This document shows positions 583 to 63,526 of a stretch of DNA of 64,000 nt, one piece after another. A program made the translations under genes and the position numbers. The stretch is from positions 682,001 through 746,000 of the forward strand of contig NZ_LR134440.1 of NCBI RefSeq assembly GCF_900637855.1, in the 5' to 3' direction. The notes beneath the pieces are model-generated. The model saw only the letters and a program-made list of their open reading frames with translations. It had not been told where the DNA came from and did not search any database. The stretch's first letter is position 1. Each line of letters starts with the position of its first letter. This DNA is from Neisseria animaloris (GTDB lineage Bacteria > Pseudomonadota > Gammaproteobacteria > Burkholderiales > Neisseriaceae).

Positions 583-2595
583 ATGAAACTCAATCCCCAG
601 CAACAACAAGCCGTGCAATATCTTGGCGGCCCCCTGCTCGTTTTGGCAGGTGCGGGCAGCGGCAAAACCGGTGTGATTACCCAGAAAATCAAATACCTGA
701 TTACCCAAGTAAATTATCCCGCCCACCACATCGCCGCCATCACGTTTACCAACAAAGCCGCTAAAGAAATGCAGGAGCGTGTGGGCAAAATGCTGCCGAA
801 AAGCCAAACGCGCGGCCTGACCATATGTACTTTCCATTCGCTCGGTATGCGCATTTTGCGTGAAGAAGCCGCCAACATCGGCTACAAGAAAAACTTTTCC
901 ATTCTCGACGGCACCGACAGTGCCAAAATCATCAACGAGCTGCTCGGCAGCACCGGCAAAGAAGCGGTGTTCAAAGCCCAGCATCAGATTTCTTTGTGGA
1001 AAAACGATTTGAAAACGCCCGAAGAAATTTTTCAGACGGCCTCCAACGAGTGGGAAAGCCAAATGGCGAAAGTGTATGCCGGCTATCAGGCCACGCTGGA
1101 GAGCTATCAGGCCGTTGATTTCGACGACTTAATCCGCCTGCCTGCCGTGCTGTTGCAGCAAAACAGCGAAGTGCGCCACAAATGGCAGCTCCGCCTGCGC
1201 TATCTGCTGGTGGACGAATGCCAAGACACCAATGCCTGCCAATACACTTTGATGAAGCTGCTCACCGGCGCGGAAGGCATGTTTACCGCCGTGGGCGACG
1301 ACGACCAATCCATCTACGCATGGCGCGGCGCAAACATGGAAAACCTGCGCCAAATGCAGGAAGATTATCCGCAGATGAAGGTAATCAAGCTGGAGCAAAA
1401 CTACCGCTCCACCGCGCGGATATTGAAAGTGGCCAACAAGGTGATTGAAAACAACCCCAAGCTGTTTAAAAAAACCTTGTGGTCGCAGTTCGGCATGGGC
1501 GAACACATCAAAATCGTCGCCTGCCAGCATGAACAGCACGAAGCCGAATGGGTGGTAAGCCAGATTGTGAAACAAAAACTGGTGGGCGGCGACAAAACCC
1601 GATACGCCGATTTCGCCGTCCTCTACCGCGGCAACCATCAGGCGCGGGTGTTTGAAGAAGCCTTGCGCAGCGCGCGCGTGCCTTACCAGCTTTCAGGCGG
1701 CCAGAGTTTTTTTGATAAGGCCGAAATCAAAGACGTATTGTCCTACATCCGCCTGCTCGCCAACCCCAACGACGACCCCGCCTTTTTACGCGCCGTTACC
1801 ACACCCAAACGCGGCATCGGTGAAGCCACGCTCGGCAAACTTAACGCCTATGCCCACAGCCACGAATGCAGCCTGTATGAAGCGGCGTTAAACCCCGAAG
1901 CACAGGCCGTCTTAAACGCCCAAAACCGCGAGCACCTGCAACAATTCATGGCCTTGATGGAAGATTACCGCGCCCGTGCCGAACACGACGACGCGGGCGA
2001 ACTCGTCAACGACCTGCTGGCCGACATCGCCTACGAAGCCCATCTGCTCGGCAGCGAAGAAGGCAAAGCCGGCGAAATCAAATGGCGCAACGTTACCGAC
2101 CTCACCGACTGGCTGGCGCGCAAAGGCGAGCAAGACGGCAAAAACATCATCGAAATCGCCCAAACCATTGCCCTGATGACGCTGCTAGAAGGCAAAAACG
2201 AAGAAGAAACAGATGCGGTTAAACTTTCTACCCTCCACGCCTCCAAAGGCTTGGAATATCCGTATGTGTTTCTTGTAGGCTGCGAAGAAGGCATGCTGCC
2301 CCACGCCGACAGCATCGAAGAGAGTAACGTCGAGGAAGAGCGGCGCTTGATGTATGTAGGCATCACCCGTGCCAAACGCCAGCTCACGCTCACCCACTGT
2401 GTGAAGCGCAAACGGCAAGGCACATGGCAGTTTCCCGACCCCAGCCGCTTTATCGACGAAATGCCGCAGGAAGATTTGAAAATCCTCGGCAGAAAAGGCG
2501 GCGAGCCGATTGTGAGTAAGGAAGAAGGCAAGAGCAATCTAGCCGGTTTGCAGGCGATGCTGGCCTCGAAAGCCAAAAGCGGCAATACGCGATAA
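583..2595 (+). CDS. rep: ATP-dependent DNA helicase Rep (UvrD/Rep superfamily 1)
   Basis: A 3'-5' single-stranded DNA translocase and helicase that clears proteins ahead of replication forks and helps restart stalled ones. At 670 residues it has the usual Rep length. Superfamily 1 motifs appear in order: Walker A AGAGSGKT at residues 22-29, DECQDT (motif II), GDDDQSIYAWRGA (motif III), QNYRST (motif IV), HASKGLEYPYVFL (motif V) and YVGITRAKR (motif VI). The start is the first ATG in frame, beginning MKLNPQQQQAV as in other Rep proteins. One uptake sequence is embedded and encodes FQTAS near residue 150. UvrD and PcrA share these motifs; the length and N-terminus favour Rep. The gene stands alone, with its own promoter and a hairpin directly behind it. 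Confidence 0.95.
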   Translation: MKLNPQQQQAVQYLGGPLLVLAGAGSGKTGVITQKIKYLITQVNYPAHHIAAITFTNKAAKEMQERVGKMLPKSQTRGLTICTFHSLGMRILREEAANIGYKKNFSILDGTDSAKIINELLGSTGKEAVFKAQHQISLWKNDLKTPEEIFQTASNEWESQMAKVYAGYQATLESYQAVDFDDLIRLPAVLLQQNSEVRHKWQLRLRYLLVDECQDTNACQYTLMKLLTGAEGMFTAVGDDDQSIYAWRGANMENLRQMQEDYPQMKVIKLEQNYRSTARILKVANKVIENNPKLFKKTLWSQFGMGEHIKIVACQHEQHEAEWVVSQIVKQKLVGGDKTRYADFAVLYRGNHQARVFEEALRSARVPYQLSGGQSFFDKAEIKDVLSYIRLLANPNDDPAFLRAVTTPKRGIGEATLGKLNAYAHSHECSLYEAALNPEAQAVLNAQNREHLQQFMALMEDYRARAEHDDAGELVNDLLADIAYEAHLLGSEEGKAGEIKWRNVTDLTDWLARKGEQDGKNIIEIAQTIALMTLLEGKNEEETDAVKLSTLHASKGLEYPYVFLVGCEEGMLPHADSIEESNVEEERRLMYVGITRAKRQLTLTHCVKRKRQGTWQFPDPSRFIDEMPQEDLKILGRKGGEPIVSKEEGKSNLAGLQAMLASKAKSGNTR

Positions 2596-2603
2596 CCGCC
2601 GGC

Positions 2604-2635
2604 AGGCCGTCTGAAAGTTTGTTTTCAGACGGCCT
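2604..2635 (+). terminator. Uptake-sequence inverted pair after rep
   Basis: AGGCCGTCTGAAA and its reverse complement are separated by about six bases and begin nine bases after the rep stop. The stem of about 13 bp ends in a short pyrimidine run. Such inverted uptake-sequence pairs are accepted as Neisseria terminators. Confidence 0.65.
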
Positions 2636-2703
2636 CTTCCCTACCCGCTACCGCCCGCCGCTTCCCCTTAACTTGCCTTACATCAAAATGCCGTCTGAAA
2701 AAA

Positions 2704-2733
2704 TTGCCTGCGCTTTTTCCGCAACTTTATAAT
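2704..2733 (+). promoter_or_regulatory. Sigma-70 promoter for the cupin-like gene
   Basis: TTGCCT and a perfect TATAAT are separated by 18 bases. The -10 ends 37 bases before the ATG at 2771, and AAAGG lies before the start as ribosome binding site. Confidence 0.6.
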
Positions 2734-2770
2734 TCCGGCTGTAATTTTCTTTCCCATCAAAGGTAAAACC

Positions 2771-3109
2771 ATGAAGCAATACACTCTCGATCCCCACGCC
2801 TTAATCGGCGGCGTGATTGCCGAAGACAACGACCAACAAATCGTGCAGCTTTCCCTTCAGAAAGACAACGAAATCCCTACCTACGAAACCGATGCCATCC
2901 TCCTGCTGATCGTGCTCAACGGCAGCGCGCAAATCATCACCGAAAAAGAAACGCTCGATACCAAAGGTCTGCAAGTGGTGCGCTTGGAACCGCACGAAGC
3001 CCACAGCATCCGCGCACTGGAAAACAACACCAATATTCTGGTGTTCAAACAGCTCACCCACGAGCTGGTGTTCAGCAAAAAACTGCGTTTCGGCAGCTGC
3101 TGCATGTAA
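2771..3109 (+). CDS. Small cupin-like protein
   Basis: A 112-residue protein with the pattern of a single small cupin barrel: a central strand-rich stretch (AILLLIVLNGSAQII), then a turn and the segment RLEPHEAHSIRAL, which resembles the second cupin motif with its histidines. The sequence ends in a Cys-Cys pair (GSCCM), which might bind metal or be redox-active; that is inference. No signal peptide or membrane segment is visible. It has its own promoter and is flanked by hairpins, so it appears monocistronic. The function is unknown; small cupins of this kind occur as sugar- or metal-binding proteins, and no substrate can be assigned here. Confidence 0.7.
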   Translation: MKQYTLDPHALIGGVIAEDNDQQIVQLSLQKDNEIPTYETDAILLLIVLNGSAQIITEKETLDTKGLQVVRLEPHEAHSIRALENNTNILVFKQLTHELVFSKKLRFGSCCM

Positions 3110-3124
3110 GCGTCTGTAATCCGT

Positions 3125-3160
3125 AAAAAAGGCCGTCTGAAACTTTTCAGACGGCCTTTT
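3125..3160. terminator. Bidirectional uptake-sequence hairpin between convergent genes
   Basis: An inverted AGGCCGTCTGAA pair has A-rich sequence on the left and T-rich on the right, so it can end transcription from both sides: the cupin-like gene on + and the DUF465 gene on -. Confidence 0.7.
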
Positions 3161-3175
3161 CACATTATTCGGCAC

Positions 3176-3400
3176 TTACGCGTTTTCGGCTTCGGTTTTA
3201 CGCAAAATAGCGTATAACTGGTCTTTCAGATGCAGTTTTTGTTTTTTCAGCACCTCGATTTCATCCAAACCGCCGGTAACGGGATTATTGGTCAAACCGG
3301 TAATTTTGTCGTCCAAATCGTTGTGCTCGTCAAACAAACGGGCGAAGTGTGCGTCTTCCCGTCTCAGTTTAGCAATCAAATCACGGTATTCTGGAAACAT
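3176..3400 (-). CDS. DUF465 (YdcH-family) small protein
   Basis: A 74-residue, highly charged protein predicted to be an alpha-helical hairpin. It begins MFPEYRDLIAKLRREDAHF and continues with a DEHNDLDDKI segment and a C-terminal EIEVLKKQKLHLKDQL helix. This is the typical pattern of the DUF465/YdcH family (DUF465 = domain of unknown function), found singly in many proteobacteria. Its role is not established. The start codon is followed directly by the family-typical N-terminus, and an AAGGAAAA sequence precedes it on the minus strand. It converges with the cupin-like gene on a shared hairpin. Confidence 0.85.
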   Translation of the reverse strand: MFPEYRDLIAKLRREDAHFARLFDEHNDLDDKITGLTNNPVTGGLDEIEVLKKQKLHLKDQLYAILRKTEAENA

Positions 3401-3596
3401 TTTGTTTTCCTTTTTGAAATAACAAATTAAAAATAAAGCAGTTATGCCCTTCTGGTTTCAATTACATTTTATAACAAAGCAAGGATTGCCTGCCAGCTTT
3501 ATTTTATTTCAGACGGCCTCTGCCGCACGCCGCCCAACTGGACGTTTCCCCCTGCCGCGCATACAATCGCAGGCATCATCTGCAAAGGAAACTTCC

Positions 3597-4346
3597 ATGA
3601 AAAACGCCGTCGAAACCATCAAAAACCACCGCACCTACCGGCATTTCAAAAGCGGCTCCGCCCTGCCGGAAGAACATCTGCAAACCATTATCGACTGCGC
3701 CCGCCAAGCCCCTTCGTGGATGAACGGCCAGCACTACACCATCATCAACATCACCTCGCCCGAACTGCGTGCAAAAATCACCGCCCTGCAACCGGCCAAC
3801 CCGCAAATCGGTACATGCAGCACCTATCTGGTTTTCGTGGCCGACCTGCACCGCGCCGACTTATCCAGCCGCGCCTACAGCGGCACCTTCAGCGCGGCCG
3901 GCGAACCCGACAGCCTGATTACCGCCGTAACCGATACCGCGCTGGCCGCCCAAAACGCCGTGATTGCCGCCGAAAGCCTCGGCTACGCCACCTGCTACAC
4001 CGGCGGTATCCGCAATATCGCCGCCGAATTAATCGAACTGCTCAAACTGCCTAAAAACACCTTTCCGATTGTCGGCCTCTGCATCGGCATCCCCGACACC
4101 GACATGCGCATCAAACCGCGCCTGCCCGAAAGCGCCGTTTACGCCGAAAACGAATACCCGTGCGACCAAACGCTTTCAGACGGCCTCGAACAATACGAAC
4201 GCACCATGACCGCATTCGGCGAAGCGCGCGAAAAATTTCCTTTCCGCGAAAAATTCGCCCGTTATTACAGCAGCACTTACGCACCGAAAAACATTCCGTT
4301 GCTGCAACAACAGGGCTGGCTTACCAAAACCGTATCCGACAACTGA
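3597..4346 (+). CDS. NADPH-dependent flavin oxidoreductase, nitroreductase (NfsA-like)
   Basis: An FMN-dependent oxidoreductase of the nitroreductase superfamily; members reduce nitroaromatics, quinones or chromate with NAD(P)H. The protein has 249 residues. The N-terminal NHRTYRHF matches the RS(V/I)R.F FMN-binding motif of the family, and ARQAPSWMNGQHY matches the A.SS.N.Q segment. AAESLGYATCYTGGIRN and VGLCIGIP are the usual later motifs. The ATG at 3597 is chosen because AAAGGAAA stands seven bases before it and the family begins here; the open frame extends upstream without conserved sequence. An uptake sequence at about 4176 encodes LSDGL. The natural substrate cannot be told from sequence. 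Confidence 0.85.
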   Translation: MKNAVETIKNHRTYRHFKSGSALPEEHLQTIIDCARQAPSWMNGQHYTIINITSPELRAKITALQPANPQIGTCSTYLVFVADLHRADLSSRAYSGTFSAAGEPDSLITAVTDTALAAQNAVIAAESLGYATCYTGGIRNIAAELIELLKLPKNTFPIVGLCIGIPDTDMRIKPRLPESAVYAENEYPCDQTLSDGLEQYERTMTAFGEAREKFPFREKFARYYSSTYAPKNIPLLQQQGWLTKTVSDN

Positions 4347-6565: not shown

Positions 6566-7711
6566 ATGACCATACTCCCCGACGATCCATGGATTGTTAC
6601 CCCGCAGAAAATACCGTTTGAAACCCCGTTGGCATTGCAAAACGGCCAAGTGCTGCCCCGTTTCGATTTGATGGTGGAAACCTACGGCACCTTAAACGAG
6701 CAAAAATCGAATGCCGTCTTAATCTGCCACGCCCTTTCCGGCCACCACCACGTTGCCGGACGGCATCATCCCGACGACAAACACCCCGGCTGGTGGGACA
6801 GCATGGTCGGCCCGGGCAAACCTATCGATACCGAACGCTTTTTCGTCGTCGGTCTGAACAACCTCGGCGGCTGCCACGGCAGCACCGGCCCGTTGAGCAT
6901 CAACCCCGAAAGCGGCGAAGAATACGGTGCCGATTTTCCCGTGATCACCGTGAAAGACTGGATAAAAAGCCAAGCCCTGTTAGCCGATTATTTCGGCATC
7001 CGCCGATGGGCGGCGGTTGTCGGCGGCAGCTTGGGCGGCATGCAGGCATTGCAATGGACGATAGACTTCCCCGAACGGGTGAAAAACGCATTGGTCATCG
7101 CCTCTTCCACCCGTTTATCCGCCCAAAACATCGCGTTTAACGACGTGGCCCGCCAAGCCATCATCACCGACCCCGACTTCCACGACGGCCACTACCGCCG
7201 CCACAACACCGTACCGCGCCGCGGTCTGCGCATCGCCCGCATGATGGGGCACATCACCTATCTCGCCGAACAAGGCTTGGGCAGAAAGTTCGGCCGCAAC
7301 ATGCACAGCGACGGCTACCAATACGGCTACGGTGTCGAATTCGAAGTGGAATCCTACCTGCGCTACCAAGGCGACAAATTTGCCGAACGCTTCGATGCCA
7401 ACACCTACTTGCGCATGACCAAAGCCTTAGACTACTTCGCTCCCGCCGCCGACTTCGGTAACGACTTGACCGCCGCCTTAAAAACCGTGCAGGCCAAATT
7501 TTTTGTCGCCAGTTTCAGCACCGACTGGCGTTTCTCCCCCTCCCGCTCGCGCGCGCTGGTGAAGCATTTGGTGAAAGCCGGCAAAGACGTTCAATACATC
7601 GAAGTCGAATCCGCCCACGGCCACGATGCCTTTCTGATGACCGACGAACCCTACATCCGCGCCGTACAGGCCTATATGAACAACGTAGCCGAGGAATGCG
7701 CCCATGACTGA
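6566..7711 (+). CDS. metX: Homoserine O-acyltransferase MetX
   Basis: An alpha/beta-hydrolase-fold enzyme that acylates the hydroxyl of homoserine, the first committed step of methionine synthesis; the product is then thiolated. The protein has 381 residues. Signatures are [19 protein letters not shown] and the nucleophile elbow [12 protein letters not shown] with Ser155. The catalytic Asp lies in FSTDWRFSP and the His in SAHGHDAFL near the end. Acetyl versus succinyl donor is not decided by these motifs, so MetX here means the family. The gene overlaps metW by eight bases, the usual proteobacterial metX-metW arrangement. Confidence 0.93.
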
Positions 7712-8288
7712 ATTACGCGACGATTTACAACTGATTTACGACTGGATTCCCGCCGGCAGCCGCGTGCTCGATTTGGGTTGTGGCAACGGCGAATTGCTTT
7801 CCGCGCTGATCAAACATAAAAATTGCAGCGGCTACGGCGTAGAAATCGACACCGACGGCATCATCGCTTCGATGGAGCGCGGGGTAAACGTGATTCAGGC
7901 CGACTTGGAACAAGGTTTGCAGGATTTCGACGACAACAGCTTCGACATTCTGGTGCTCAGCCAAACCATACAGGCCATGCAGAACACCGAAACCATCCTG
8001 CGCGACCTTACCCGCGTGGCGAAACAGGCGATTGTGTCTTTCCCCAATTTCGGCTACTGGCGCAACCGCCTGCAAATCGGCCTGCTCGGACACATGCCCG
8101 TATCCGAACGCATGCCCTACCAGTGGTACAACACGCCGAACATCCATTGGTGCACCCTGCAAGATTTCGACCGCCTGTGTGCCAAAAACCACATCCGCGT
8201 GCTGGAACGCACCGTGATGACGGGCGGCAAACGCATCAACATGCTGCCCAACCTGCTCGGCAGCTTGGCCTTTTACCGGGTGGGATAG
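7704..8288 (+). CDS. metW: Methionine biosynthesis protein MetW
   Basis: A 194-residue protein with a class I S-adenosylmethionine-dependent methyltransferase fold: motif [13 protein letters not shown] at about residues 20-31, YGVEID after it, and [10 protein letters not shown] in the middle. MetW proteins are found next to metX in many beta- and gammaproteobacteria and are required for efficient methionine synthesis; the acting mechanism is thought to be activation of MetX. The ATG lies inside the 3' end of metX, so translation is probably coupled. Confidence 0.93.
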
Positions 8289-8300
8289 TTTGCATAGTCG

Positions 8301-8334
8301 AGAGGCCGTCTGAAAATACTTTCAGACGGCCTCT
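8301..8334. terminator. Uptake-sequence hairpin between metW and ybaB
   Basis: An inverted AGAGGCCGTCTGAA pair lies between two convergent genes, 13 bases after the metW stop; it probably ends both transcripts. Confidence 0.7.
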
Positions 8335-8366
8335 TTCAATATGTTAGTGCCGGTACGGCAAAACCG

Positions 8367-8702
8367 TTAACGGAAAAAGTCGCCCATTCCGGCAGGCAGT
8401 CCTTGGGTGAACGCGCCCATGGTTTTGTTGGTGGTTTCTTCGGCTTTATTGCCTGCGTCGTTGATGGCGGCCAGCACCAAATCTTCGAGCATTTCTTTAT
8501 CGTCGGCCGCTTCTTTAATCAAATCTTCGCTGATGTCGATTTTGCGGACAACGTGGTTGCAGGTCATGGTTACTTTAACCAAGCCGTTGCCTGCTTCGCC
8601 GTTCACTTCGGTTTCAGCCAGCTTGGCTTGCGCTTTTTTCATGTTTTCCTGCATTTGTTGAGCCTGCTTCATCAGGCCGCCTAATCCGGCTTTTCCGAAC
8701 AT
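8367..8702 (-). CDS. YbaB/EbfC nucleoid-associated protein
   Basis: A 111-residue DNA-binding protein of the YbaB/EbfC family, which acts as a homodimer. It begins [20 protein letters not shown], continues with a long charged helix and the conserved VKVTMTCNH strand, and ends in the family-typical glycine-rich tail [11 protein letters not shown]. The ATG at 8702 is chosen because AGGAG lies eight bases before it and the family starts here; an upstream extension of the frame is not conserved. It follows dnaX on the same strand after about 220 bases, the same order as dnaX-ybaB-recR elsewhere, but recR is not present here. Confidence 0.93.
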
Positions 8703-8920
8703 GGTTTTACTCCTGGTTAAAAAGGGTTTGATGATACCTTTTGAATGGGAAGACGGCAATACGGCGCGGCTTTTCAGAAGGGTTTATATAAGCCTGCACA
8801 CGGCAGCCGGCAAACCAACAGTAATATCAAACAGAATATGAACGTTTCAGGCCGTCTGAAAGTGAGCTTTGCGCACTTCGCTAAAACTTTTAAATGCTGT
8901 TTTCAGACGGCCTCGATGCT

Positions 8921-11245
8921 TTATTCCTGCGACTCGGCCAGTTTGAGTGTGTCGGGCAGCCACTCGGCTTCAAAAAGGTCGAGAATCTGCCGTGCGGTTT
9001 GGTCGGCCTCAAGCAGGTCTTGCGCTTTTTGGCGGCCTTCGAGTTGCAGGCGTTTGCTGCGCATGGCAGGGGTTTCCCAACCGGCATCGTCGCGCCACGG
9101 CTCGGTTTGCAGCTTCAGTTGCAAACCGTAGGCATCGGCAAGGGTGTTTTGGATTTTGTCGAGACGCTCTTTATTGGTAACGGCGCGAGCCTCGCCCGAT
9201 AGTGACAACAGCATCAAGCCTTTTTCGGCATCGTAGCCGGTCCAGGCGGCGTGTTGGGTCAGCATTTGCGCCGCGCCGAGTTTGGCGGCAAAGCGTTTGG
9301 CGATGGCCGCCCAGTTTTCGGGGGCGAACTCGGGCAGCGGGGTGAAGCCTGCTTCGTCTTCATCGTCGGGCGGCGTTTCGTCCTGCTCTGTTTGTGCATT
9401 ATCCGTTTTTTCGTGGTGTTCAGACGGCATCACCGGCGCATCGTATTCGGGATAGCCGTATTCTTCGGGAAAATACGGCGGCTCGTCTGCATCGGGATAA
9501 GGCGGCACATCGGCATATTCGGGCGGATAATCCGAGGCCGTCTGAAAAGCGGTTTCGGCGGTTTCAGACGGCATGGTTTGCGGGCTGTGCACTTCGCTTA
9601 ACGGAGAGGCCGTCTGAATATGGGCCGTGCTTGCTGCCGGTGTTGCCGCTTCGGCCTCAAGGCTTTCCATGCTTTCAGACGGCATGGCGGCTTCGGGTTG
9701 GCCGGTTTGAGGCGTTTCAGGTGCGGTTGGTTCTTGTGCGGCAATTTGTTCGCCTGCCGTTTCAGACGGCTTTACTGTCGGCATTGAGGCCGTCTGAAAA
9801 TGCTCTGTTGCCACGGCAGGTGTTTCCTGCGCGTGATTGTGCAAAGGTGCTTCTTCTGCCTGAGCCGCTGTTTGCGTTTCAATTTTTTCAGACGGCCTGA
9901 TCTCTTCGGAAGCCGTCTGAAAGCCGTTCTCTGCCGTTTCAGGTGTTTGCGGTGCATCTTCCCACGGCGGGGTGTCTTCTGCCTGAACAACCGCATCAGG
10001 CTTTTCAGACGGCCTCACAGCGGGTGCGGGCGGTTTTTGGGCGGCAGGCGGTGTAGTTTGTGTTTCAGGCAGAATCAGCGGCTTTTTTGCGGCAGGTTCC
10101 GCCGCTTCGGGGTTGTGCAGTTGCGTGCCTTCAATCACGCCGTCGGGGTCGTGCGCTTTCGCGGCAATCGGGGCGAACGCGAGCATACGCAACAGCGTCA
10201 TCACGAAACCGGCGTATTCGTCGGGCGCAAGGCTCAAATCCTGTTTGCCATGGATGGCGCACTGGTAGTAAAGCTGGATTTGTTCGCCGCTTAAATATTG
10301 CGATAAGCGCAGCAGCGTTTCGTGTTCGGGGTCGTCGGCAATGGCGGCAGGAACGGTTTTCGCCAAGGCCAACCGTTGCAGCAGCATAGCCAACTCGCTC
10401 AGGGCGTTGTCGAAACCGATGGCGCGGGCGGCCATTTCCTGTGCTTTGCGCAGCAGTTCTTCGCCGTCTTGGTTCACGATGCCTTGCAGCAGTTCGTAAA
10501 GATAGCGTTTGTCGACTGCGCCAATCATCTGGCGGACATCATGTTCGGTAACGCTGCCCGAACCCATCGCAATCGCTTGGTCGAGCAGGCTCAAGGCATC
10601 GCGCATCGAACCCATGGCGGCGCGGCCGAGCAGTTGCAGCGCGGGCGGCTCGAACGGAATCTGCTCCTCCGTCAGCACATGCGCCAAATGGTCGGCCACT
10701 TGCTGCGTGGTCATGTTGCGCAGCACGAATTGCAGGCAGCGGCTCAATACGGTAATCGGCACTTTGTGCGGGTCGGTGGTGGCGAGAATGAATTTTACAT
10801 GCTCGGGCGGCTCTTCCAGCGTTTTCAGCATGGCATTGAACGCGCTTTTGGAAAGCATGTGCACTTCGTCGATGATATAGACTTTGTATTTGCCGGCGGT
10901 GGGCGCGTATTGGGCGTTTTCGAGCACTTCGCGGATGTTGTCGATGCCGGTGTTGGAAGCCGCGTCGATTTCGAGCAAGTCGACGTAACGCCCCGCGTCG
11001 ATTTGGGTGCAGCTTTGGCACACGCCGCAAGGCTCGCCGTGGTTGGCGTTTTCGCAGTTGAGACTTTTTGCCAGAATGCGGGCGATGGTGGTTTTGCCCA
11101 CCCCGCGCGTGCCGGTAAGCAGATAGGCATGGTGCAGGCGGCCTTCGTCGAGCGCATTGCGCAGGGCTTTGACAACGTGTTCCTGTCCGACCAAATCGGC
11201 AAAGGTTTTAGGCCGCCACTTACGGGCGAGAACTTGGTAAGCCAT
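8921..11245 (-). CDS. dnaX: DNA polymerase III subunits gamma and tau
   Basis: The clamp-loader ATPase subunit that also, as tau, holds the polymerase cores and helicase together at the fork. The protein has 774 residues. Domain I has Walker A GTRGVGKTT at residues 45-53, the zinc-binding cysteines 64, 73, 76 and 79, and DEVHMLSKSAFNAMLKTLEE. Domain III follows to about residue 365. Residues 385-640 form a low-complexity Pro/Ala/Glu/Thr linker in which ten uptake-sequence cores are embedded, encoding recurring peptides such as RPSEK and FQTAS. The last 130 residues (from about PENWAAIAKRF) are a globular tau C-terminal domain. I see no clear A-run slippage site, so a separate gamma form is unproven. 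The start begins MAYQVLARKWRP as in the family. Confidence 0.95.
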   Translation of the reverse strand: MAYQVLARKWRPKTFADLVGQEHVVKALRNALDEGRLHHAYLLTGTRGVGKTTIARILAKSLNCENANHGEPCGVCQSCTQIDAGRYVDLLEIDAASNTGIDNIREVLENAQYAPTAGKYKVYIIDEVHMLSKSAFNAMLKTLEEPPEHVKFILATTDPHKVPITVLSRCLQFVLRNMTTQQVADHLAHVLTEEQIPFEPPALQLLGRAAMGSMRDALSLLDQAIAMGSGSVTEHDVRQMIGAVDKRYLYELLQGIVNQDGEELLRKAQEMAARAIGFDNALSELAMLLQRLALAKTVPAAIADDPEHETLLRLSQYLSGEQIQLYYQCAIHGKQDLSLAPDEYAGFVMTLLRMLAFAPIAAKAHDPDGVIEGTQLHNPEAAEPAAKKPLILPETQTTPPAAQKPPAPAVRPSEKPDAVVQAEDTPPWEDAPQTPETAENGFQTASEEIRPSEKIETQTAAQAEEAPLHNHAQETPAVATEHFQTASMPTVKPSETAGEQIAAQEPTAPETPQTGQPEAAMPSESMESLEAEAATPAASTAHIQTASPLSEVHSPQTMPSETAETAFQTASDYPPEYADVPPYPDADEPPYFPEEYGYPEYDAPVMPSEHHEKTDNAQTEQDETPPDDEDEAGFTPLPEFAPENWAAIAKRFAAKLGAAQMLTQHAAWTGYDAEKGLMLLSLSGEARAVTNKERLDKIQNTLADAYGLQLKLQTEPWRDDAGWETPAMRSKRLQLEGRQKAQDLLEADQTARQILDLFEAEWLPDTLKLAESQE
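9418..10015. repeat. Cluster of ten uptake-sequence cores inside dnaX
   Basis: Ten exact copies of GCCGTCTGAA or its reverse complement lie in about 600 bases (near 9420, 9538, 9563, 9609, 9674, 9761, 9789, 9888, 9911 and 10004). Both orientations occur. Several carry the AG prefix of the full AG-type signal and several the AT prefix. All lie in frame within the tau linker coding sequence. Confidence 0.9.
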
Positions 11246-41216: not shown

Positions 41217-44200
41217 TTAATCAAGGTGTTCGCTACTTTGCGCCAATACGGTACGGTTGCCGTTGGCCTCCGGAGCCGAAACGATACCGTCGGCTTCCAT
41301 TTGGTCGATCAAACGGGCGGCACGGTTGTAGCCGATGCGCAAATAACGCTGCACCGATGAAATGGTTGCTTTACGGGTTTTAATCACACAGGCAACGGCA
41401 TCGTCATACATCGGATCTTGTTCTTCATCACTGCTTCGTCCGCTGTTGGCATTGCTGAACAGATCATCACCGCCCACTCCGGCAGTCAGAATATCGTCGA
41501 TATAATTCGGCTCTCCGAACTGTTTGAGATATTCGACAACACGATGAACTTCATCATCCGCAACAAAGGCACCGTGCACACGCTTCGGGTAACCGGTGCC
41601 CGGCGGCAGAAACAGCATATCACCTTGCCCCAATAGATTTTCAGCCCCCATCTGGTCAAGAATCGTGCGGCTGTCGACTTTGCTGGAAACCTGAAATGCA
41701 ATGCGCGTCGGAATATTGGCTTTAATCAAACCGGTAATCACATCCACACTCGGGCGCTGGGTAGCCAAAATCAAGTGGATACCCGCTGCGCGGGCTTTCT
41801 GCGCCAAACGTGCAATCAACTCTTCGATTTTCTTGCCTGCCGTCATCATCAAGTCGGCAAACTCATCCACCACCACTACGATAAACGGCAGTTTTTCCAA
41901 CGGTTCGGGTTCGGAAGGCGTTAAGCTGAACGGATTAGCCATGATTTCACCGCGAGCCGCCGCTTCGGCCACTTTTTGATTAAAGCCCGCCAAATTACGC
42001 ACACCGACATGGCTCATCAAACGGTAACGCTTTTCCATCTCGTTCACACACCATGTCAGCGCATTGGCGGCTAGCTTCATATCGGTAACCACCGGTGCAA
42101 GCAGATGGGGGATTCCCTCGTAAATACTCAGCTCCAGCATTTTCGGGTCTATCATAATCATGCGGACTTCATCAGGCGTTGCTTTAAACAACATTGATAA
42201 AATCATCGAATTCACGCCAACCGATTTACCCGATCCGGTCGTACCCGCCACCAATAGATGCGGTGCTTTGGCCAAATCGGTTACCACCGGTTCACCGGTA
42301 ATGTCTTGCCCCAAAGCAAGCGTCAGTTTGGATTTGGATTCCTGAAAAGCAGGCGAATTGAAAATTTCACTCAAACGTATCATCTGCCGCTTGGGGTTTG
42401 GTAACTCCAAGCCCATGCAGGTTTTGCCCGGTATGGTTTCAACCACACGGATAGAAGCTACTCCTAAGGAGCGTGCCAAATCTTTTTCAAGATTCAATAC
42501 AGCATTCCCACGTACGCCGACATCCGGCTCAATTTCATAGCGGGTGATAACAGGGCCAGAATAAGCATCCATCACCTTCACTTTTACTTTAAACTCAGCC
42601 AACTTTTCTTCAATGGTAATGCTGTTTTCCAACAATGCTTCTTCCGTTTGCGTTGCTGTCGGATCAAATTGCGGCGGTTGCAGCAAGTCGACTGCGGGCA
42701 AATGAGATTCGCCTTTTGAAACGGTAACGACACGCGGAATCGGCCTTACAGAGGCTGCTGTAACTGTTGTCGTTTCAGACGGCCTCACCAAATCTTCTGC
42801 CGATTGCTTCGAGGCATGCTCAAAAACTGCAGCAGTCGCTTTGTCTGTTTCATCCGAGGCCGTCTGAAAACCTTCTTTATCTGTAACTATCGGAGCGGAT
42901 TCACTGATCAAACGGTCTGTAATCGTCCAGTGCGGAGCATCACTGATGTGAGCATTGACCGCAGACACTTCTGCTTCTTCATATAACATCACTCGCGGAG
43001 AAGAAACAGCAGCAGTGTTATGAAATACCGGTGGCTCGGGAATATCAATCACTTGTCGTTCCACTTCAGGCATGAAAGGAGGTTCCACAACGGTTGTCAT
43101 TGAATCGGGCGCAGCAGCATAAGGCGTAAAACGGGTAGATATGGGAGATGTTCCGGCTATTTTCGGCGGCTGGAGTTTGGCCACATGACTTTGTTCGACA
43201 CGCGCTGCATCAGGAATCACGCTTTCACGCATTGCCATATTAATGCGGCGGATACGTTGACGATTAACAGGTGAATCGGTTTTTGCCAAATTAGCAAACA
43301 CTTCACCTTCCGGAATCACTTTCGGCTGAAGCACTTGCACTGGAGTTTGAGCCGCAACTTGACGGCGACGGGCTAAACGTTGACGCAGCAAATTGGCACG
43401 GATATCTTCCACCCCAATGGTTTCGGGAGAATTTAATGCCTGTTCGACCGATTGTATTATTTCAGTACGAGGTATCGTATGCGAAGAAATTTGTCGTACT
43501 TCTGACAACACACGTTCACGCGTCCGTTTTAACGCAGGATCATCCAAACCAATTGTTTTTAATTCAACCACAGGTTTAGGTGGCTCGATTTCTTCCAATG
43601 CGGGTCTGAACTGCCAATTAATCTCAACCACTTCCATGTCAGACGTAGGTTTGGAAATAGACGGTTGCAGTTTCGTTTCCTGCGGTTCGATATCTATCAG
43701 CGGTGTTTCCCGCAATGCACGGGTAGCCTCTTCCAAGGTAATAACCGGCAAGGAAGAATCTGTCATCTTGGCAGGGAGATATTCCCCATCTTCAAAATCC
43801 AAATAAGGTGCGGGAGCAATTGATTTTCCCGTTGCACGCAATGGTTTCTGCTCTGAAGAAATGGGCACTTCCGGCAACACTGCACCAAACATTGGAATAT
43901 TATTTCCTTCTTCATCATCCGAATCAGACTGAATTGCCTCGTTTAATGAGAAAACTTGTATTTTTTCAACCTCATTCACATCCGCAAATTCATGTTGACT
44001 ATCTTCTGTTATTTCTACAACATGTTTTACCTCAGACGCAGAGGCAAAGATAGGCAATTCATTCAAACCATCATCTTTATTTCCATCACGAACCATTCCT
44101 GACGTAGCATCCAACTTACGGCTGTGCTTCGGAGACAAAGCCCGAAATTTCTCTACGGTTTTATCGTACACCGCCTTAGCCTCTTCCGCCGCCTTATAAA

Positions 44201-44411
44201 TTTGGCGTGTGTTTTTCAGATTTGGATCAACACCTCGCAATGCTTTCAGTTGTTTTCCATCCGAGGTATCAGATTCAACACCGTTATCTGTTTCTTCATG
44301 ACGGCTAAGATAAGTAAGTTCCAGTAGCCACTCTTGTTCTTGGCGACGACGGATCCACAGCATACCGGCAATAGCACATAACAGCAAAATCAGTAAAAAT
44401 GTCCACAACAT
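41217..44411 (-). CDS. ftsK: DNA translocase FtsK with one membrane segment
   Basis: A hexameric DNA pump that clears the chromosome terminus from the septum and activates dimer resolution. The protein has 1064 residues from an ATG at 44411, chosen because it gives the N-terminus [20 protein letters not shown] that I recall in related Neisseria proteins; an upstream TTG is less likely. Only this one membrane helix is present, not the four of enteric FtsK. Residues 40-560 are a variable, charged linker. The motor has Walker A GTTGSGKS at about 723-730 and Walker [10 protein letters not shown] near 845-853. The gamma domain at the end ([19 protein letters not shown]) reads KOPS-type orienting sequences. 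Two uptake sequences lie in the linker. Confidence 0.92.
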
Positions 44412-44811
44412 AAACACAATGGCCTTGATTGGTTTCGGCAAAGTTGTTATTTTAACTTGTTTCAGCCTTCACTTGAAGAAATTGTTTTTATTCAAATTAC
44501 TATTGGTGCATAGTGTAGAAAAATATGGCAATCAGACTTAAATAATCCCATAACACTTTTCCTAAATACATAAAATATCCGGCATGAAAATTAATCATGC
44601 CAGATAAATTTCATACCCTCTATATTGCATGCTTCGTCCATACGGTCAGGTCGGGTGTTGAGCCCGCTTTCATGACAGGACTTCATCAACACCCACGACA
44701 TTATCCCTCCCAACCTCCATTATCACCCTCTTTCCTGCCACATCGGCCTCTCCCACAAACGCCAAAGGCTGCGGAGTCACCCCCACAGCCCCAACATCCT
44801 TCCAGGCTTCC
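44412..44811. other. Region between ftsK and comE: no gene seen
   Basis: About 400 bases. The part next to ftsK is A+T-rich and probably carries its promoter. A short hairpin GGCATGA/TCATGCC lies at about 44580-44604. The part next to comE is rich in C on the plus strand and contains GGCTG/CAGCC arms at about 44766-44788, which could end the comE transcript. Confidence 0.4.
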
Positions 44812-45105
44812 TTACTTCTTCAGCACCGGCTGCGCCTTCCCTTTCGCCGATCCATGACCGGATACCACCGCCTCCACTTTCAGCTTCGACAATATCCCCT
44901 CACCGATTCCCTTTACATTCTTCAACTCGTCCACACTCTTGAACTTGCCGTTCTGCGTCCGGTATTCCACTATCGCCGCCGCCTTCGACGGCCCGATTCC
45001 CGGCAGTGCCTTCAATTCTTCCGCCGTCGCCGTATTGATGTTCACCGCCGCCAACGACCACGCCGATACCAGCAGACCCACCAGAGCCAATACATACCGT
45101 TTCAT
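44812..45105 (-). CDS. comE: Competence DNA-binding protein ComE (ComEA family)
   Basis: A periplasmic DNA-binding protein that pulls incoming DNA through the outer membrane during natural transformation. The protein has 97 residues: a signal peptide MKRYVLALVGLLVSAWSLAA, then a helix-hairpin-helix domain (VNINTATAEELKALPGIGPS, then VKGIGEGILSKL) and a basic tail KGKAQPVLKK. The ATG at 45105 follows AAGGGAAAA. It lies about 250 bases downstream of the 5S rRNA gene on the same strand; in gonococcus several identical comE copies sit behind rRNA operons in this way. Confidence 0.93.
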   Translation of the reverse strand: MKRYVLALVGLLVSAWSLAAVNINTATAEELKALPGIGPSKAAAIVEYRTQNGKFKSVDELKNVKGIGEGILSKLKVEAVVSGHGSAKGKAQPVLKK

Positions 45106-45311
45106 GTTTTCCCTTTCATAATATGAATTCAAATAATCTTATTGCTGTCAATAACCGCACGAATCCGGAAACATACTTCCATATCGCAGAAACAGCTGCG
45201 CTATCATAAGCATATTTCCCCTCCCGCTCAAACATTTTCAGCGCAACGCTGCCGACCCACTCCCCCACTGTCGCCCTCCCGCGACAACACCCACGTCCCT
45301 CCCCTCCAAGT

Positions 45312-45344
45312 AAAAACCCCCGATACTTCTCAGTATCAGGGGTT
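45312..45344 (-). terminator. Terminator of the rRNA operon
   Basis: AACCCCTGATACT, a short loop and AGTATCGGGGGTT on the minus strand, followed by TTTTT, ten bases behind 5S rRNA. Confidence 0.85.
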
Positions 45345-45353
45345 AGCAATGAG

Positions 45354-45469
45354 TGTCTGGCAGTGACCTACTTTCACATGGGTATCCACACTATCATCGG
45401 CGCTGAGTCGTTTCACGGTCCTGTTCGGGATGGGAAGGCGTGGGACCAACTCGCTATGGCCGCCAGACG
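45354..45469 (-). rRNA. rrf: 5S ribosomal RNA
   Basis: About 116 bases. On the minus strand it begins TCTGGCGGCCATAGCGAG and contains the conserved CCCATCCCGAAC loop; the ends pair (GTCTGGC with GCCAGAC). End positions are approximate by a few bases. Confidence 0.93.
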
Positions 45470-45619
45470 TAAACTGTACAAATCGGGAAAGCCGTCAGGG
45501 AAATGCATCCCTTCTCTTTATTCTTCAATCAACGGTGATGGGTATCGTCTTCAAGACTGATATAAGCTTTATTTTCGAAGCCTCAACACCCACTACGGTG
45601 CAAAAGTCCTTCAAATGAT

Positions 45620-48510
<2,891 letters not shown>

Positions 48511-48880
48511 ATTTGAAGTACCTTTTTGACTTCGTTGCTACAGCGTTGACTACCTTCGCAACTTAAAGGCCTCTACTTTGATAAAACTTACTGCTTGTTG
48601 TGTACCGAACTGTGCCTTTTGTCTTTCACAGCCCGGTCGATACAATCATCACCCAAATACTGCGGCTTACCTGTTACGGCAAGCCGACATTGTCTTTGTT
48701 TGTTGATTTCGGCTTTCCAATTTGTTAAAGATCGATGCGCTTCTTAAAAAAAGGAATAAGTAAACTTTTCCTTCTCTAACCTACACAAATTAAAATATTC
48801 TTTACTTCATCTTTATCTATTCAGATGCCAAACATCTAAAGACTAAAGACAAACAAAAATACTTTGATTTGCAAAGTATT
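48511..48880 (-). other. 16S-23S internal spacer, part between tRNA-Ala and 23S
   Basis: 370 bases of transcribed spacer. It holds one arm of the 23S processing stem next to 23S and a boxA-like antitermination element on the minus strand (GATCTTTAACA, at about 48723-48733). No gene is present. Confidence 0.7.
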
Positions 48881-48956
48881 TGGTGGAGGCAAACGGGATC
48901 GAACCGATGACCCCCTGCTTGCAAAGCAGGTGCTCTACCAACTGAGCTATGCCCCC
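48881..48956 (-). tRNA. tRNA-Ala (TGC anticodon)
   Basis: On the minus strand: GGGGGCATAGCTCAGTTGGT, anticodon loop TTTGCAA with TGC, T loop GGTTCGATCC, and encoded CCA. It lies in the 16S-23S spacer beside tRNA-Ile. Confidence 0.97.
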
Positions 48957-48964
48957 CAATCTCT

Positions 48965-49041
<77 letters not shown>

Positions 49042-49139
49042 AGATTACTCCAACTTCGTCGGGATTCTCCCAACCAGTCTTGCATCTTTAATACACAGTT
49101 TACCGATAAGTGTGAATGCGACCAAACCTCTTTTTTCTC

Positions 49140-50684
<1,545 letters not shown>

Positions 50685-50798
50685 ATCTCTAACTTTAACT
50701 TCTGGTCTGCTTCAAAGAAACCGACAAAGATATTTATCTTGTCTGTTTTTGTCGCAGTGTGAGGCCCAATCGCACTCACACTTATCGGTAATCTGTTC

Positions 50799-50809
50799 TG
50801 TTAAAGAGC
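50799..50809 (-). promoter_or_regulatory. rRNA leader boxA antitermination element
   Basis: GCTCTTTAACA on the minus strand, a close match to the boxA consensus that loads the NusB/NusE antitermination complex, 115 bases before 16S. Confidence 0.7.
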
Positions 50810-50902
50810 GTCCCGAACATCATCACAACCAATACTGCCTAACGCAAAATCTGTTATAATGAATATTCGCTTTCAAACACCGCCGAAGCAGCGAAGAACC
50901 GA

Positions 50903-50932
50903 ACTATACCCGCCCTCCCCCAATAACGTCAA
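50903..50932 (-). promoter_or_regulatory. rRNA operon promoter
   Basis: On the minus strand TTGACG and TATAGT are separated by 18 bases with a very G-rich spacer, followed by a discriminator TCGGTTC. Strongly A+T-rich sequence upstream (50940-51050) fits an UP element. The leader to 16S is about 210 bases. The flanking region to hemB has no other gene. Confidence 0.7.
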
Positions 50933-51077
50933 CCCCACAGCAGAAAAATCCGACCGAAAAACAAACAGACCACTGTTTTATCAAGAAATTTTATTTAGCA
51001 TAGATTTTATACAATTGATTTTTTACTCTTTAAAAAACTAAACCACTTACTTTTACCTTTTACAAAATAATTTTTAA

Positions 51078-52115
<1,038 letters not shown>

Positions 52116-52158
52116 CTGCATTTTTCTTGAAATTTGGAAGATATTATTTAATTATTTA

Positions 52159-52258
52159 AGCCGTCTGAAATATTGTTCCGACGGCTAAATTAATCTTTAT
52201 TTCTTATAATATTAAGGAAGAGTAAAAATAAGCCGCCTAAATTTTAGACGGCTTTTAG
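52159..52258. terminator. Two degenerate uptake-sequence hairpins between hemB and rseA
   Basis: AAGCCGTCTGAA with GTTCCGACGGCTA at 52159-52189, and AAGCCGCCTAAA with TTTAGACGGCTT at 52233-52258. Both are imperfect uptake-sequence pairs that still form stems and lie between convergent genes. They look like decayed signals kept for terminator function. Confidence 0.6.
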
Positions 52259-61663: not shown

Positions 61664-61786
61664 CGGAGAACACAACCGGCTTGCCTGCCGCCCTGCCTGA
61701 CAGATATTGACCGACAAACTGCAACCCGCCGCCTTCACCATGCGGTTTTCCATTAACCGAAGACAGGCCGTCTGAAAGGAGAAAAC

Positions 61787-63475
61787 ATGCCCCCGCTCCC
61801 CCGTTTGCCCATTCCCGATCTCAACGAAACCTGCGAACGTTATCTGAAGCAAGTACGGCCGCTGCTGACCGACGAAGAATACAAAAAAACCGTAGCCGCC
61901 ACCCGCTATTTCAAATCCGCCCGCGGCAAAGGCCCCGAACTGCAAGCGACCCTTCAAAAATTTGATAACAAAGCCGAAAAAAGCTGGCTGATTGATGTAT
62001 GGCTGGAAAGCTATTTAAAAATCCGTACCCCCCTTCCGCTAACCAGCAATGTGGGGTTTACCGTTCAAACGTTCGACAAAGGACTGGCGGAATGGACTGC
62101 CGCACTGGCTTCCGTATGCGCCGACTACCATCACAACCGCATTCCGACACCGAAAACGCCGCAAGGCACGCCCGTCTGCATGGAGCAATGGAAAATTCTG
62201 CAAGGAGCCTGCCGCGTTCCCCGTCAGGGAACCGACCGCTATCATTTCGCCCCGCAAGGCGGCCGCCATATCGGGATATTGCACAACGGCTTTTACTACC
62301 GCATTACCGCGCTCGACGAGCAATTCGAAGCCTATCATCCCGATACGTTCAAACAGGCTTTCGGGCAGATTCTGGCCGATTCCGACAACAATCCTTTCCC
62401 CGTCGCCGTTCCCTGCTATTTGGGCGGGGACGGAACCGCAACCGTATACGAAGCCCTGCGTTTAGAGGCCGATAACGCCGAGCTGGTCAAGTATATCGAA
62501 AACGACCTGTTCCACATCAGCATCAACCAAGAAGACCTCGATGCCGATGCCGACCTCACCCTCGCCACCTTCGTGCCGCAACAAAACGTGTGGTGTTACA
62601 AACCCACAACTTATTGTTACAACACCGTTACCCGACGTTTATTCCTACATTGCGAACACGCTTGGGAAGATGGCGGCGCACTCAAAGGCATCGTCGTGCG
62701 TGCTGCGGAGCATCTAAACAAACCCGCCGGCCAAACCATACAACCGGCGGTCAACCGTTACCAATGGCAGTTGGACGAAACCCTTCAACAGAACTGGGCG
62801 CAATGGCAGAAAAACTATGCCGCCCGCGCCGCCAAAATGAGCGTGCTCAGCATCACCGTTCCGTTTAACGGTTACAAAATCCCCGAAGGCATCAGCCAAG
62901 ATGCTTTGATGCAGTTTTTGCTGCAATATGCGCAGCTTTCCACTTACGGCGATGTCCGCAACACTTACGAAGCTGTCGATGTCAGCCATTTTCAAAGCGG
63001 TCGTACGGAGTGCGTGCGCCCTATCTCCGATGAATCGCTAGCTTTCGTAACCGGCCTGCTGCGTGAACAACCCAATAAGGAAGCATTGAGTGCCGCGCTT
63101 GCCGAACACAAAGCCCGCATCAAAACCGCTAAACAAGGGCTCGGAGCCAACCGGCACCTGCTCGGACTACAACTGATGGTGCCTGAAGTTTGCAGCCGCG
63201 TGCCGACATTCTTCCGCAACGAAGGATACAAAATCTTCACCACCGATTTTCTGTCCACCTCCACCCTCGGCGACGATACCAACACTCTCAATTTTGCCTT
63301 CGCCCCCACGTTAGCGGGCGGCTTGGGCATCAATTACACGGTAACGTGCGAAGGATGGCTGTTTACCGTCAGCCATCTATCCAGCCAGAAGCAGGAAGCC
63401 GGCATCTTTCTCGAATCGGTCAAACAAGGCGGCGAGCGCTTACTGACTTTTCTCAATTCTAAAATAAAAGAGTAA
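61787..63475 (+). CDS. Choline/carnitine O-acyltransferase family protein
   Basis: A 562-residue protein that matches the eukaryotic carnitine/choline acyltransferase family along its length. The N-terminus (LPIPDLNETCERYLKQVRPL) corresponds to the typical P.P.L..T...YL start. The catalytic His is His291 in CEHAWEDG. GRTECVRPISDESLAF at 405-420 matches GRTDxIRSASxxSL; Thr407 and Arg456 (in NRHLLGL) occupy the positions that bind the carnitine carboxylate in animal carnitine acetyltransferase, where choline acetyltransferases have Val and Asn. Ser490-Thr-Ser492 matches the STS motif, and the Arg456-Ser490 distance (34) equals that in the animal enzyme as I recall it. Carnitine rather than choline is the likely acceptor; acyl length is unknown. 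No signal peptide; probably cytoplasmic. An uptake sequence and GGAG precede the ATG. Confidence 0.88.
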   Translation: MPPLPRLPIPDLNETCERYLKQVRPLLTDEEYKKTVAATRYFKSARGKGPELQATLQKFDNKAEKSWLIDVWLESYLKIRTPLPLTSNVGFTVQTFDKGLAEWTAALASVCADYHHNRIPTPKTPQGTPVCMEQWKILQGACRVPRQGTDRYHFAPQGGRHIGILHNGFYYRITALDEQFEAYHPDTFKQAFGQILADSDNNPFPVAVPCYLGGDGTATVYEALRLEADNAELVKYIENDLFHISINQEDLDADADLTLATFVPQQNVWCYKPTTYCYNTVTRRLFLHCEHAWEDGGALKGIVVRAAEHLNKPAGQTIQPAVNRYQWQLDETLQQNWAQWQKNYAARAAKMSVLSITVPFNGYKIPEGISQDALMQFLLQYAQLSTYGDVRNTYEAVDVSHFQSGRTECVRPISDESLAFVTGLLREQPNKEALSAALAEHKARIKTAKQGLGANRHLLGLQLMVPEVCSRVPTFFRNEGYKIFTTDFLSTSTLGDDTNTLNFAFAPTLAGGLGINYTVTCEGWLFTVSHLSSQKQEAGIFLESVKQGGERLLTFLNSKIKE

Positions 63476-63486
63476 AAACATCATGA

Positions 63487-63526
63487 AACAGGCCGTCTGA
63501 ATCACTTTTCGGACGGCCTGTTTTTA
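63487..63526 (+). terminator. Uptake-sequence hairpin after the acyltransferase gene
   Basis: AACAGGCCGTCTGAA and TTCGGACGGCCTGTTTTT: one arm carries A-to-G in the core, a change that still allows G-U pairing. A run of five T follows. Confidence 0.75.

What the first reader, a model, noticed from the sequence alone, without database searches (positions are those of the whole stretch)
61787..63475. Bacterial carnitine acyltransferase with apparently intact active site
Seen: the protein has the catalytic EHA..(E/D)G motif (His291), GRT.C.R (Thr407), NRHLLG (Arg456) and STS (490-492), and the spacing between Arg456 and the STS motif is 34 residues. Known: in animal carnitine acetyltransferase the equivalents are His343, Thr465, Arg518 and Ser552-Thr-Ser554 (numbers from memory), with Val and Asn replacing Thr and Arg in choline acetyltransferases. 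Inference: a working carnitine-type enzyme. The family is known mainly from eukaryotes and only sporadically in bacteria, so transfer from a host or other eukaryote is possible. It could let the cell use or make acylcarnitines in an animal mucosa.
Basis: partly seen in the sequence, partly recalled or inferred. Interest (0 to 1): 0.8.

Follow-up and report, generated by a model that had tools for sequence, protein, structure and literature searches.

The report
Bacterial carnitine acyltransferase with transporter partner
A Neisseria-family bacterium carries an apparently intact cousin of the mitochondrial carnitine acetyltransferase, old in bacteria rather than recently taken from an animal, and related bacteria keep it together with one particular transporter and an unrecognised membrane protein of about 42 residues, which points to a small module for handling acylcarnitines.

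Summary

New: one BCCT transporter subfamily occurs in 21 of 83 family genomes, all of which carry the enzyme gene (split in one); 59 have neither, 3 the enzyme gene or a remnant alone. In 300 order genomes both are in the same 4. In 17 of 23 loci they are neighbours; in the window's genome they lie apart. Behind the transporter, in 23 of 23 loci, sits an undescribed one-helix protein of about 42 residues under purifying selection.

Departures from animal enzymes: never Gly at Met564 (short-chain prediction) and no Lys423, one of two CoA-phosphate lysines (0 of 31). Best reading: a short-chain acylcarnitine uptake-and-transfer module. Activity and direction are inferred.

The parts
61787..63475 (+). 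Gene for a carnitine acyltransferase, 562 aa, stop codon included
   Evidence: open frame; PF00755 337 bits; model matches CrAT, CPT2, COT and ChAT structures
61776..61782 (+). AAGGAGA, a likely ribosome binding site 4 bases before the ATG
   Evidence: read directly from the sequence; inference
62657..62659 (+). Codon of the catalytic His291 (CrAT His343)
   Evidence: alignment; His in 31 of 31 clade rows
62870..62896 (+). Loop G362-S370, two residues shorter than in mouse CrAT; CrAT Lys419 and Lys423 have no aligned lysine here (Lys364 lies one place off)
   Evidence: alignments; Lys423 kept in 0 of 31 clade rows
62966..62971 (+). Codons of Tyr394 and Glu395 (CrAT Tyr452, Glu453)
   Evidence: 31 of 31 clade rows
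63005..63007 (+). Codon of Thr407 (CrAT Thr465; Val in rat ChAT)
   Evidence: 31 of 31 clade rows; ChAT seen
63110..63112 (+). Codon of Lys442 (CrAT position 504), basic throughout the clade
   Evidence: Lys or Arg in 31 of 31 clade rows; role inferred
63152..63154 (+). Codon of Arg456 (CrAT Arg518; Asn in rat ChAT)
   Evidence: 31 of 31 clade rows, 9 of 20 other bacterial rows
63254..63262 (+). Ser490-Thr-Ser492 motif (CrAT Ser552-Thr-Ser554)
63293..63295 (+). Codon of Phe503, at the place of CrAT Met564, counted back from the conserved Pro507
   Evidence: never Gly in 31 clade rows
61767..61776 (+). Neisseria-type DNA uptake word GCCGTCTGAA just before the gene
   Evidence: 102 copies in the window, 0.14 expected
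63492..63501 (+). Neisseria-type DNA uptake word GCCGTCTGAA just after the gene

Best explanation
The gene encodes a cytosolic, short-chain (most likely acetyl) carnitine acyltransferase of an old bacterial clade. It is the enzymatic half of a module whose other half is a membrane unit: a distinct BCCT-family transporter plus a co-encoded one-helix protein of about 42 residues. In the window's genome that unit lies elsewhere, at G000:C1:126026-127711 (outside the window); in most relatives the three genes are adjacent in the order transporter, small protein, enzyme. Proposed working: the transporter brings in an acylcarnitine from outside; the enzyme moves the acyl group to CoA, giving acetyl-CoA without spending ATP; free carnitine is left for exchange or export. 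The small protein is an accessory or regulator of the transporter. Shown here: gene, predicted fold, residues, clade, purifying selection, co-occurrence, adjacency, the small gene. Inferred: activity, substrate, chain length, direction, transport coupling and the small protein's role.
For: Residues for catalysis and carnitine binding in 31 of 31 clade rows. Model fold. One BCCT subfamily in 21 of 83 family genomes, all with the enzyme gene, 59 with neither (Fisher p 8e-17 without correction for kinship), and in the same 4 of 300 order genomes; adjacent in 17 of 23 loci. Where unlinked, the two still diverge in step (r 0.85 over 96 pairs of an unlinked with a linked genome). Small protein behind the transporter in 23 of 23, pN/pS 0.30. 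A bulky or at least non-Gly residue at Met564 in 31 of 31. No CaiB in 46 of 46 genus genomes and a strong 3HCDH_N match in 3 of 21 enzyme-bearing ones, not in G000, so long acyl groups have no evident use in most. Trp box of the transporter in 23 of 23. A parallel: in A. baumannii a choline- and carnitine-importing BCCT gene stands beside an acylcarnitine hydrolase gene (PMC6562126, passages, discussion).
Against: No activity data. The CoA-phosphate lysine Lys423 is gone in 31 of 31 clade rows, so CoA may not be the partner or may be held otherwise. The transporter has neither CaiT's Arg262 and Met331 nor BetP's full sodium sites, so exchange is not shown. Three family genomes have the enzyme gene (G038, G081) or a remnant (G013) without this transporter, and it is not beside the distant enzymes of G569 and G490. 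The window enzyme's dN/dS against G027, 0.19, is higher than that of four neighbouring genes (0.07-0.13) and of the transporter (0.02). Co-occurrence was not corrected for kinship.
Confidence: 0.6

Rival explanations
1. Reverse direction: the transporter brings in free carnitine (as compatible solute or carrier) and the enzyme loads it with acetyl groups, buffering acetyl-CoA against free CoA and perhaps exporting acetylcarnitine.
For: The reaction is reversible in CrAT (abstract of PMC11852590). The transporter's TM3 motif GIGVG resembles the GMGIG said to be typical of glycine betaine importers and absent from CaiT (PMC6562126).
Against: Such buffering needs no dedicated transporter tied to the enzyme this tightly; nothing here tests direction.
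Confidence: 0.22
2. A different substrate pair: the acceptor is another betaine, or the acyl carrier is not ordinary CoA (a carrier protein or a form without the 3'-phosphate).
For: Lys423 is absent in 31 of 31 clade rows and Lys419 in 29 of 31, with a shorter loop; CrAT itself has a much higher Km for 3'-dephospho acetyl-CoA (1300 uM against 25-240 uM in the table of PMC11852590). The transporter has W366 replaced by Tyr in 23 of 23.
Against: Asp430, Glu453, Thr465 and Arg518 are unchanged; Lys419 is also absent in 16 of 28 eukaryotic and 10 of 20 other bacterial rows, so it is not essential to the family; a basic residue at 504 in 31 of 31 may stand in.
Confidence: 0.13
3. Recent transfer of the gene from an animal host or another eukaryote.
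For: The family is rare in bacteria: 3 of 398 phylum genomes, 4 of 300 order genomes.
Against: In the protein search the named eukaryotic proteins rank below the bacterial ones, at 24-29% identity (one at 34% over a third of the length). Trees put the window in a bacterial group at 100/100 and eukaryotes on another branch at 99/97; Neisseriales with Lautropia plus eukaryotes as one clade costs 373 log units, AU p 1e-5.
Confidence: 0.02

Closest known systems
Animal carnitine O-acetyltransferase (CrAT; PDB 1nm8, 1ndb)
   Different: About 23-25% identity; Lys419 and Lys423 absent, loop two residues shorter; clade with bacteria only; gene tied to a BCCT transporter.
CPT2, COT and ChAT (PDB 2h4t, 1xl7, 2fy2)
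   Different: Rat ChAT has Val and Asn at the Thr465 and Arg518 places, the window Thr and Arg. Gly at the Met564 place in 11 of 28 eukaryotic rows, 0 of 31 clade rows.
E. coli CaiT, L-carnitine/gamma-butyrobetaine antiporter, with the cai operon
   Same: BCCT family; Trp142, Trp147, Trp323 and Trp324 places kept; transporter gene beside genes for its substrate's metabolism.
   Different: Arg262 to Thr, Met331 to Val, Trp316 to Tyr, Tyr327 to Trp in 23 of 23; no CaiB-type protein in 46 of 46 genus genomes.
A. baumannii Aci01347, choline and carnitine BCCT beside an acylcarnitine hydrolase gene (PMC6562126)
   Same: A BCCT next to an enzyme that acts on acylcarnitines.
   Different: There a hydrolase, here a transferase that would keep the acyl group activated; a small one-helix partner is not mentioned in the parts I read.
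Small proteins that act on transporters (MgtS, MntS, AcrZ and others, reviewed in PMC10710835)
   Same: A protein of under about 70 residues tied to one transporter.
   Different: No Pfam or NCBIfam match above cut-off; in the passages I saw (12 of 21 places) no small partner of a BCCT transporter is named.

Membership tests
Choline/carnitine O-acyltransferase family (PF00755) | Full-length profile match over the gathering score | tested here: met
   337.1 bits against 22.3, profile 1-572 of 574
Choline/carnitine O-acyltransferase family (PF00755) | Catalytic His and the two-domain fold | tested here: met
Carnitine (not choline) type | Thr465 and Arg518 places Thr and Arg | tested here: met
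   Thr407 and Arg456; 31 of 31 clade rows each; ChAT contrast
Carnitine (not choline) type | Acyl transfer to L-carnitine | not testable with these tools
   no assay
Short-chain (CrAT-like) specificity | Non-Gly residue at the Met564 place | tested here: met
   Phe503 by alignment from Pro507; one-residue insertion nearby, so the register is not certain; coordinates not inspected
Animal-type CoA site | Lys419 and Lys423 for the 3'-phosphate | tested here: not met
   no aligned lysine in the window; Lys423 0 of 31, Lys419 2 of 31 clade rows; feature from PMC11852590
BCCT transporters (partner gene, L087:9158-10711) | PF02028 match over the full length | tested here: met
   383 bits, profile 2-484 of 485
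BCCT transporters (partner gene) | A named NCBIfam subfamily (betaine, BetT, CaiT and others) | tested here: not met
   five models match, none reaches its cut-off
CaiT-type antiporter (partner gene) | Arg262 and Met331 (role recalled) | tested here: not met
   Thr and Val in 23 of 23
BetP-type sodium symporter (partner gene) | Na1 (T246, T250, F380) and Na2 (A147, M150, F464, T467, S468) | tested here: not met
   F380, F464 and T467 kept; T246 to Ile, T250 to Val, A147 to Thr, M150 to Ile in 23 of 23; S468 Thr in 21, Ser in 2; site list from PMC6562126

The most novel reading that the evidence does not exclude
Neisseria-family bacteria run a bacterial counterpart of the mitochondrial carnitine shuttle: a BCCT transporter of a new subfamily, working with an obligate one-helix subunit of about 42 residues (the first such partner of a BCCT that I know of), exchanges host acetylcarnitine for carnitine, and a transferase with a different way of holding CoA converts it into acetyl-CoA at no ATP cost.
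Probability: 0.25. Interest if true: 0.85.

Novelty: new variant of a known kind. Interest (0 to 1): 0.62.

Why it matters
It turns a lone 'eukaryote-like' gene into a testable three-part module: enzyme, dedicated transporter and an overlooked small protein. If right, it would show a route by which host-associated bacteria tap acylcarnitines while keeping the energy of the acyl bond, would give a BCCT transporter a small subunit, and would show a carnitine acyltransferase without the lysine at Lys423 that the animal enzymes use for CoA. It also bears on where eukaryotic carnitine acyltransferases came from, since a second bacterial group lies on the eukaryotes' side of the tree.

Full report

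Residues. I aligned the window with 78 relatives and mouse CrAT: 31 rows of the window's bacterial clade, window included ('group I'), 20 other bacterial rows ('group II') and 28 eukaryotic rows (24 named, 4 unnamed that nest among them in the tree). In group I, His343, Asp at 347, Asp430, Tyr452, Glu453, Thr465, Arg518 and Ser552 are 31 of 31; Ser554 is Ser in 23 and Thr in 8. Group II keeps Arg518 in 9 of 20 and Thr465 in 15 of 20. The place of Met564, counted from the conserved Pro because of a one-residue insertion, is F19, Y5, V3, M2, C1, L1 in group I and Gly in 11 of 28 eukaryotic rows. From what is known of CrAT (recalled; the titles of the M564G entries 1t7n and 2h3w, the latter with hexanoylcarnitine, are), a bulky residue here shuts the longer-chain pocket, so a short-chain enzyme is predicted. 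A departure: Lys419 and Lys423, which a recent review says hold the 3'-phosphate of CoA and are conserved in the enzymes it compared (PMC11852590, its section 3, first of two parts read), have no counterpart: Lys423 in 0 of 31, Lys419 in 2 of 31, with a loop two residues shorter in the window. Lys423 is kept in 19 of 20 group II and 23 of 28 eukaryotic rows; Lys419 only in 10 of 20 and 12 of 28, so the contrast rests on Lys423. Group I has Lys or Arg at position 504 in 31 of 31; that it replaces the clamp is inference.

Origin. A 79-row tree (quick) and a 65-row tree without 14 long or redundant rows (careful) agree. In the second, group I is one side of a branch at 100/100 (28 rows), eukaryotes at 99/97 (21 rows), and Neisseria, Uruburuella, Conchiformibius and Lautropia with three unnamed rows at 100/99 (14 rows). 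Group II (with Magnetococcales, Desulfobacterales, Clostridia, Streptomyces and Mycobacteriales; names) lies on the eukaryotes' side of the main branch. Holding Neisseriales, Lautropia and eukaryotes together costs 373 log units, AU p 1e-5. So the gene did not come recently from a host.

Distribution. PF00755 is found in 21 of 46 genomes of the genus (19 full length and unbroken, one in two pieces, G042, one remnant, G013), 24 of 83 of the family, 4 of 300 of the order, 3 of 398 of the phylum and 0 of 14 control genomes. The window copy is under purifying selection, dN/dS 0.19 against G027 and 0.15 against G025, but the first is higher than in neighbouring genes (ubiH 0.11, class-V aminotransferase 0.13, mltG 0.08, phosphatase-like 0.07) and in the partner transporter (0.02).

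Partner transporter. Neighbourhood comparison showed a BCCT-family gene directly upstream of the enzyme in most loci, while flanks further out often differ between genomes. In the window's genome and its sister (L001, the same as G027) the enzyme stands between the phosphatase-like ORF and the class-V aminotransferase. The same BCCT type is nevertheless in G000, at C1:126161-127711 (-), and likewise unlinked in G027, G045, G010, G011 and G020. Full-length members are 71-100% identical to the one from L002; the other BCCTs fetched are at most 34%. Searched by itself over the 83 family genomes, the type is in 21 (71% or more to the window genome's copy; next 33% or less), and all 21 carry the enzyme gene, in 20 unbroken and in G042 in two pieces. 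Three genomes have an enzyme gene without it: G038, G081 (a very divergent copy) and G013 (remnant). The other 59 have neither (Fisher p 8e-17 over 83 and 5e-11 over the 46 of the genus, not corrected for kinship). In the order searches of 300 genomes, whose listed rows are the same, both are in the same four, G000, G026, G044 and G373. In the phylum search the type is in 1 of 396; it is not beside the enzymes of G569 and G490 in the 18 and 12 kb fetched, their whole genomes not being settled. In 17 of 23 loci with this transporter (21 family genomes and 2 Lautropia) it is next to the enzyme gene, in 6 not. Transporter and enzyme diverge in step (r 0.89 over 231 pairs of 22 genomes; 0.85 over the 96 pairs of an unlinked with a linked genome), which shared descent alone could also give.

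What the transporter looks like. PF02028 383 bits, but none of five matching NCBIfam models reaches its cut-off. The Trp box is kept (BetP W189, W194, W371, W373, W374, W377 in 23 of 23; W366 is Tyr) and the glycine motif reads GIGVG. CaiT's Arg262 and Met331 are Thr and Val in 23 of 23. BetP's Na1 residues Thr246 and Thr250 are Ile and Val in 23 of 23; of Na2, Phe464 and Thr467 are kept (site list from PMC6562126). Substrate and coupling stay open; a trimethylammonium substrate is likely.

The small gene. Between transporter and enzyme lies an ORF too short for my ORF lists. It follows the transporter in 23 of 23 loci, also where the enzyme is elsewhere; in 15 of 23 it starts 3-4 bases after the stop codon (the search asked for a motif read off the first examples and took the longest reading, so some starts are uncertain; 41-69 residues as read). 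In G000 it is C1:126026-126154 (-), 42 residues. It has one hydrophobic stretch and 12 invariant residues over the 16 sequences aligned. Codon changes are mostly silent: pN/pS 0.30, pN below pS in 250 of 253 pairs; read in the two shifted frames the ratio is 0.85 and 1.7. No Pfam or NCBIfam match above cut-off for the 3 tried. The protein search found 72 relatives; those with a name are 'hypothetical protein', where an organism is given Neisseria, Lautropia or Conchiformibius. No trace was found in five enzyme loci without this transporter (L047, L053, L097, L098, L050). Of 37 other BCCT ORFs, 4 have some small hydrophobic ORF behind them, none alike by eye.

Metabolic setting. No CaiB-type protein (PF02515) in 46 of 46 genus genomes, while E. 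coli and four other controls ring. 3HCDH_N above 100 bits in 6 of 46, three of them enzyme-bearing, not G000. Acyl-CoA dehydrogenase: one weak match in G000 (43 bits), none in 7 of the 21 enzyme-bearing genus genomes. So most carriers have no evident beta-oxidation for long acyl groups; acetyl or other short groups fit better.

Mechanism. Committed reading: uptake of a short-chain acylcarnitine through the BCCT and small-protein unit and acyl transfer to CoA by the enzyme, with carnitine left over for exchange or export. The reverse use (acetylating imported carnitine) and an unusual donor or acceptor are the main rivals. A known parallel is the A. baumannii BCCT gene beside an acylcarnitine hydrolase gene (PMC6562126).

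Novelty. The enzyme in Neisseria is already named by automatic annotation (names). The tie to this transporter subfamily, the small protein and the missing CoA lysine I saw in none of the papers listed by the nine searches named under Tried and rejected, which cover open papers only and were partly cut lists.

Noticed in passing
L087:9026-9154 (-), i.e. G000:C1:126026-126154, outside the window: Unannotated-looking one-helix protein of 42 residues behind the partner BCCT; conserved in 23 of 23 such loci.
   Followed up: yes
L087:9158-10711 (-), i.e. G000:C1:126158-127711, outside the window: BCCT transporter of a subfamily that reaches no NCBIfam cut-off and lacks BetP's Na1 threonines.
   Followed up: yes
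Group II bacterial rows (for example P0145, P0146, P0160, P0163): Other bacterial PF00755 proteins (Clostridia, Streptomyces and others) have Gln or Gly at the carnitine-binding Arg518 in 11 of 20 rows, so they may not use carnitine.
   Followed up: no
L050 (G013) and L049 (G042): Enzyme gene reduced to short pieces in G013 and read in two overlapping pieces in G042; G013 also lacks the partner transporter. Signs of loss, or in G042 perhaps of assembly error.
   Followed up: partly
L053 (G081) 7624-9387: A very divergent PF00755 protein (29% identity) in another genus of the family, without the partner transporter; electron-transfer-flavoprotein-like and CoA-transferase-like ORFs follow (by eye).
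   Followed up: no
L097 (G490) 1879-3726: A PF00755 gene next to methyltransferase-like ORFs and a 2169-residue ORF that looks like a peptide synthetase (by eye).
   Followed up: no
G030:C6:36677-37189 and G033:C130:1218-1742: 3HCDH_N matches in open frames of about 340 codons, unlike the 800-codon FadB-type frames of four other genomes; the G030 one has a stop inside. Carnitine dehydrogenases are of this kind (recalled).
   Followed up: no
window 42869-52159: No uptake word GCCGTCTGAA in over 9 kb around the rRNA operon (45355-50683), against 102 copies in the rest of the window.
   Followed up: no
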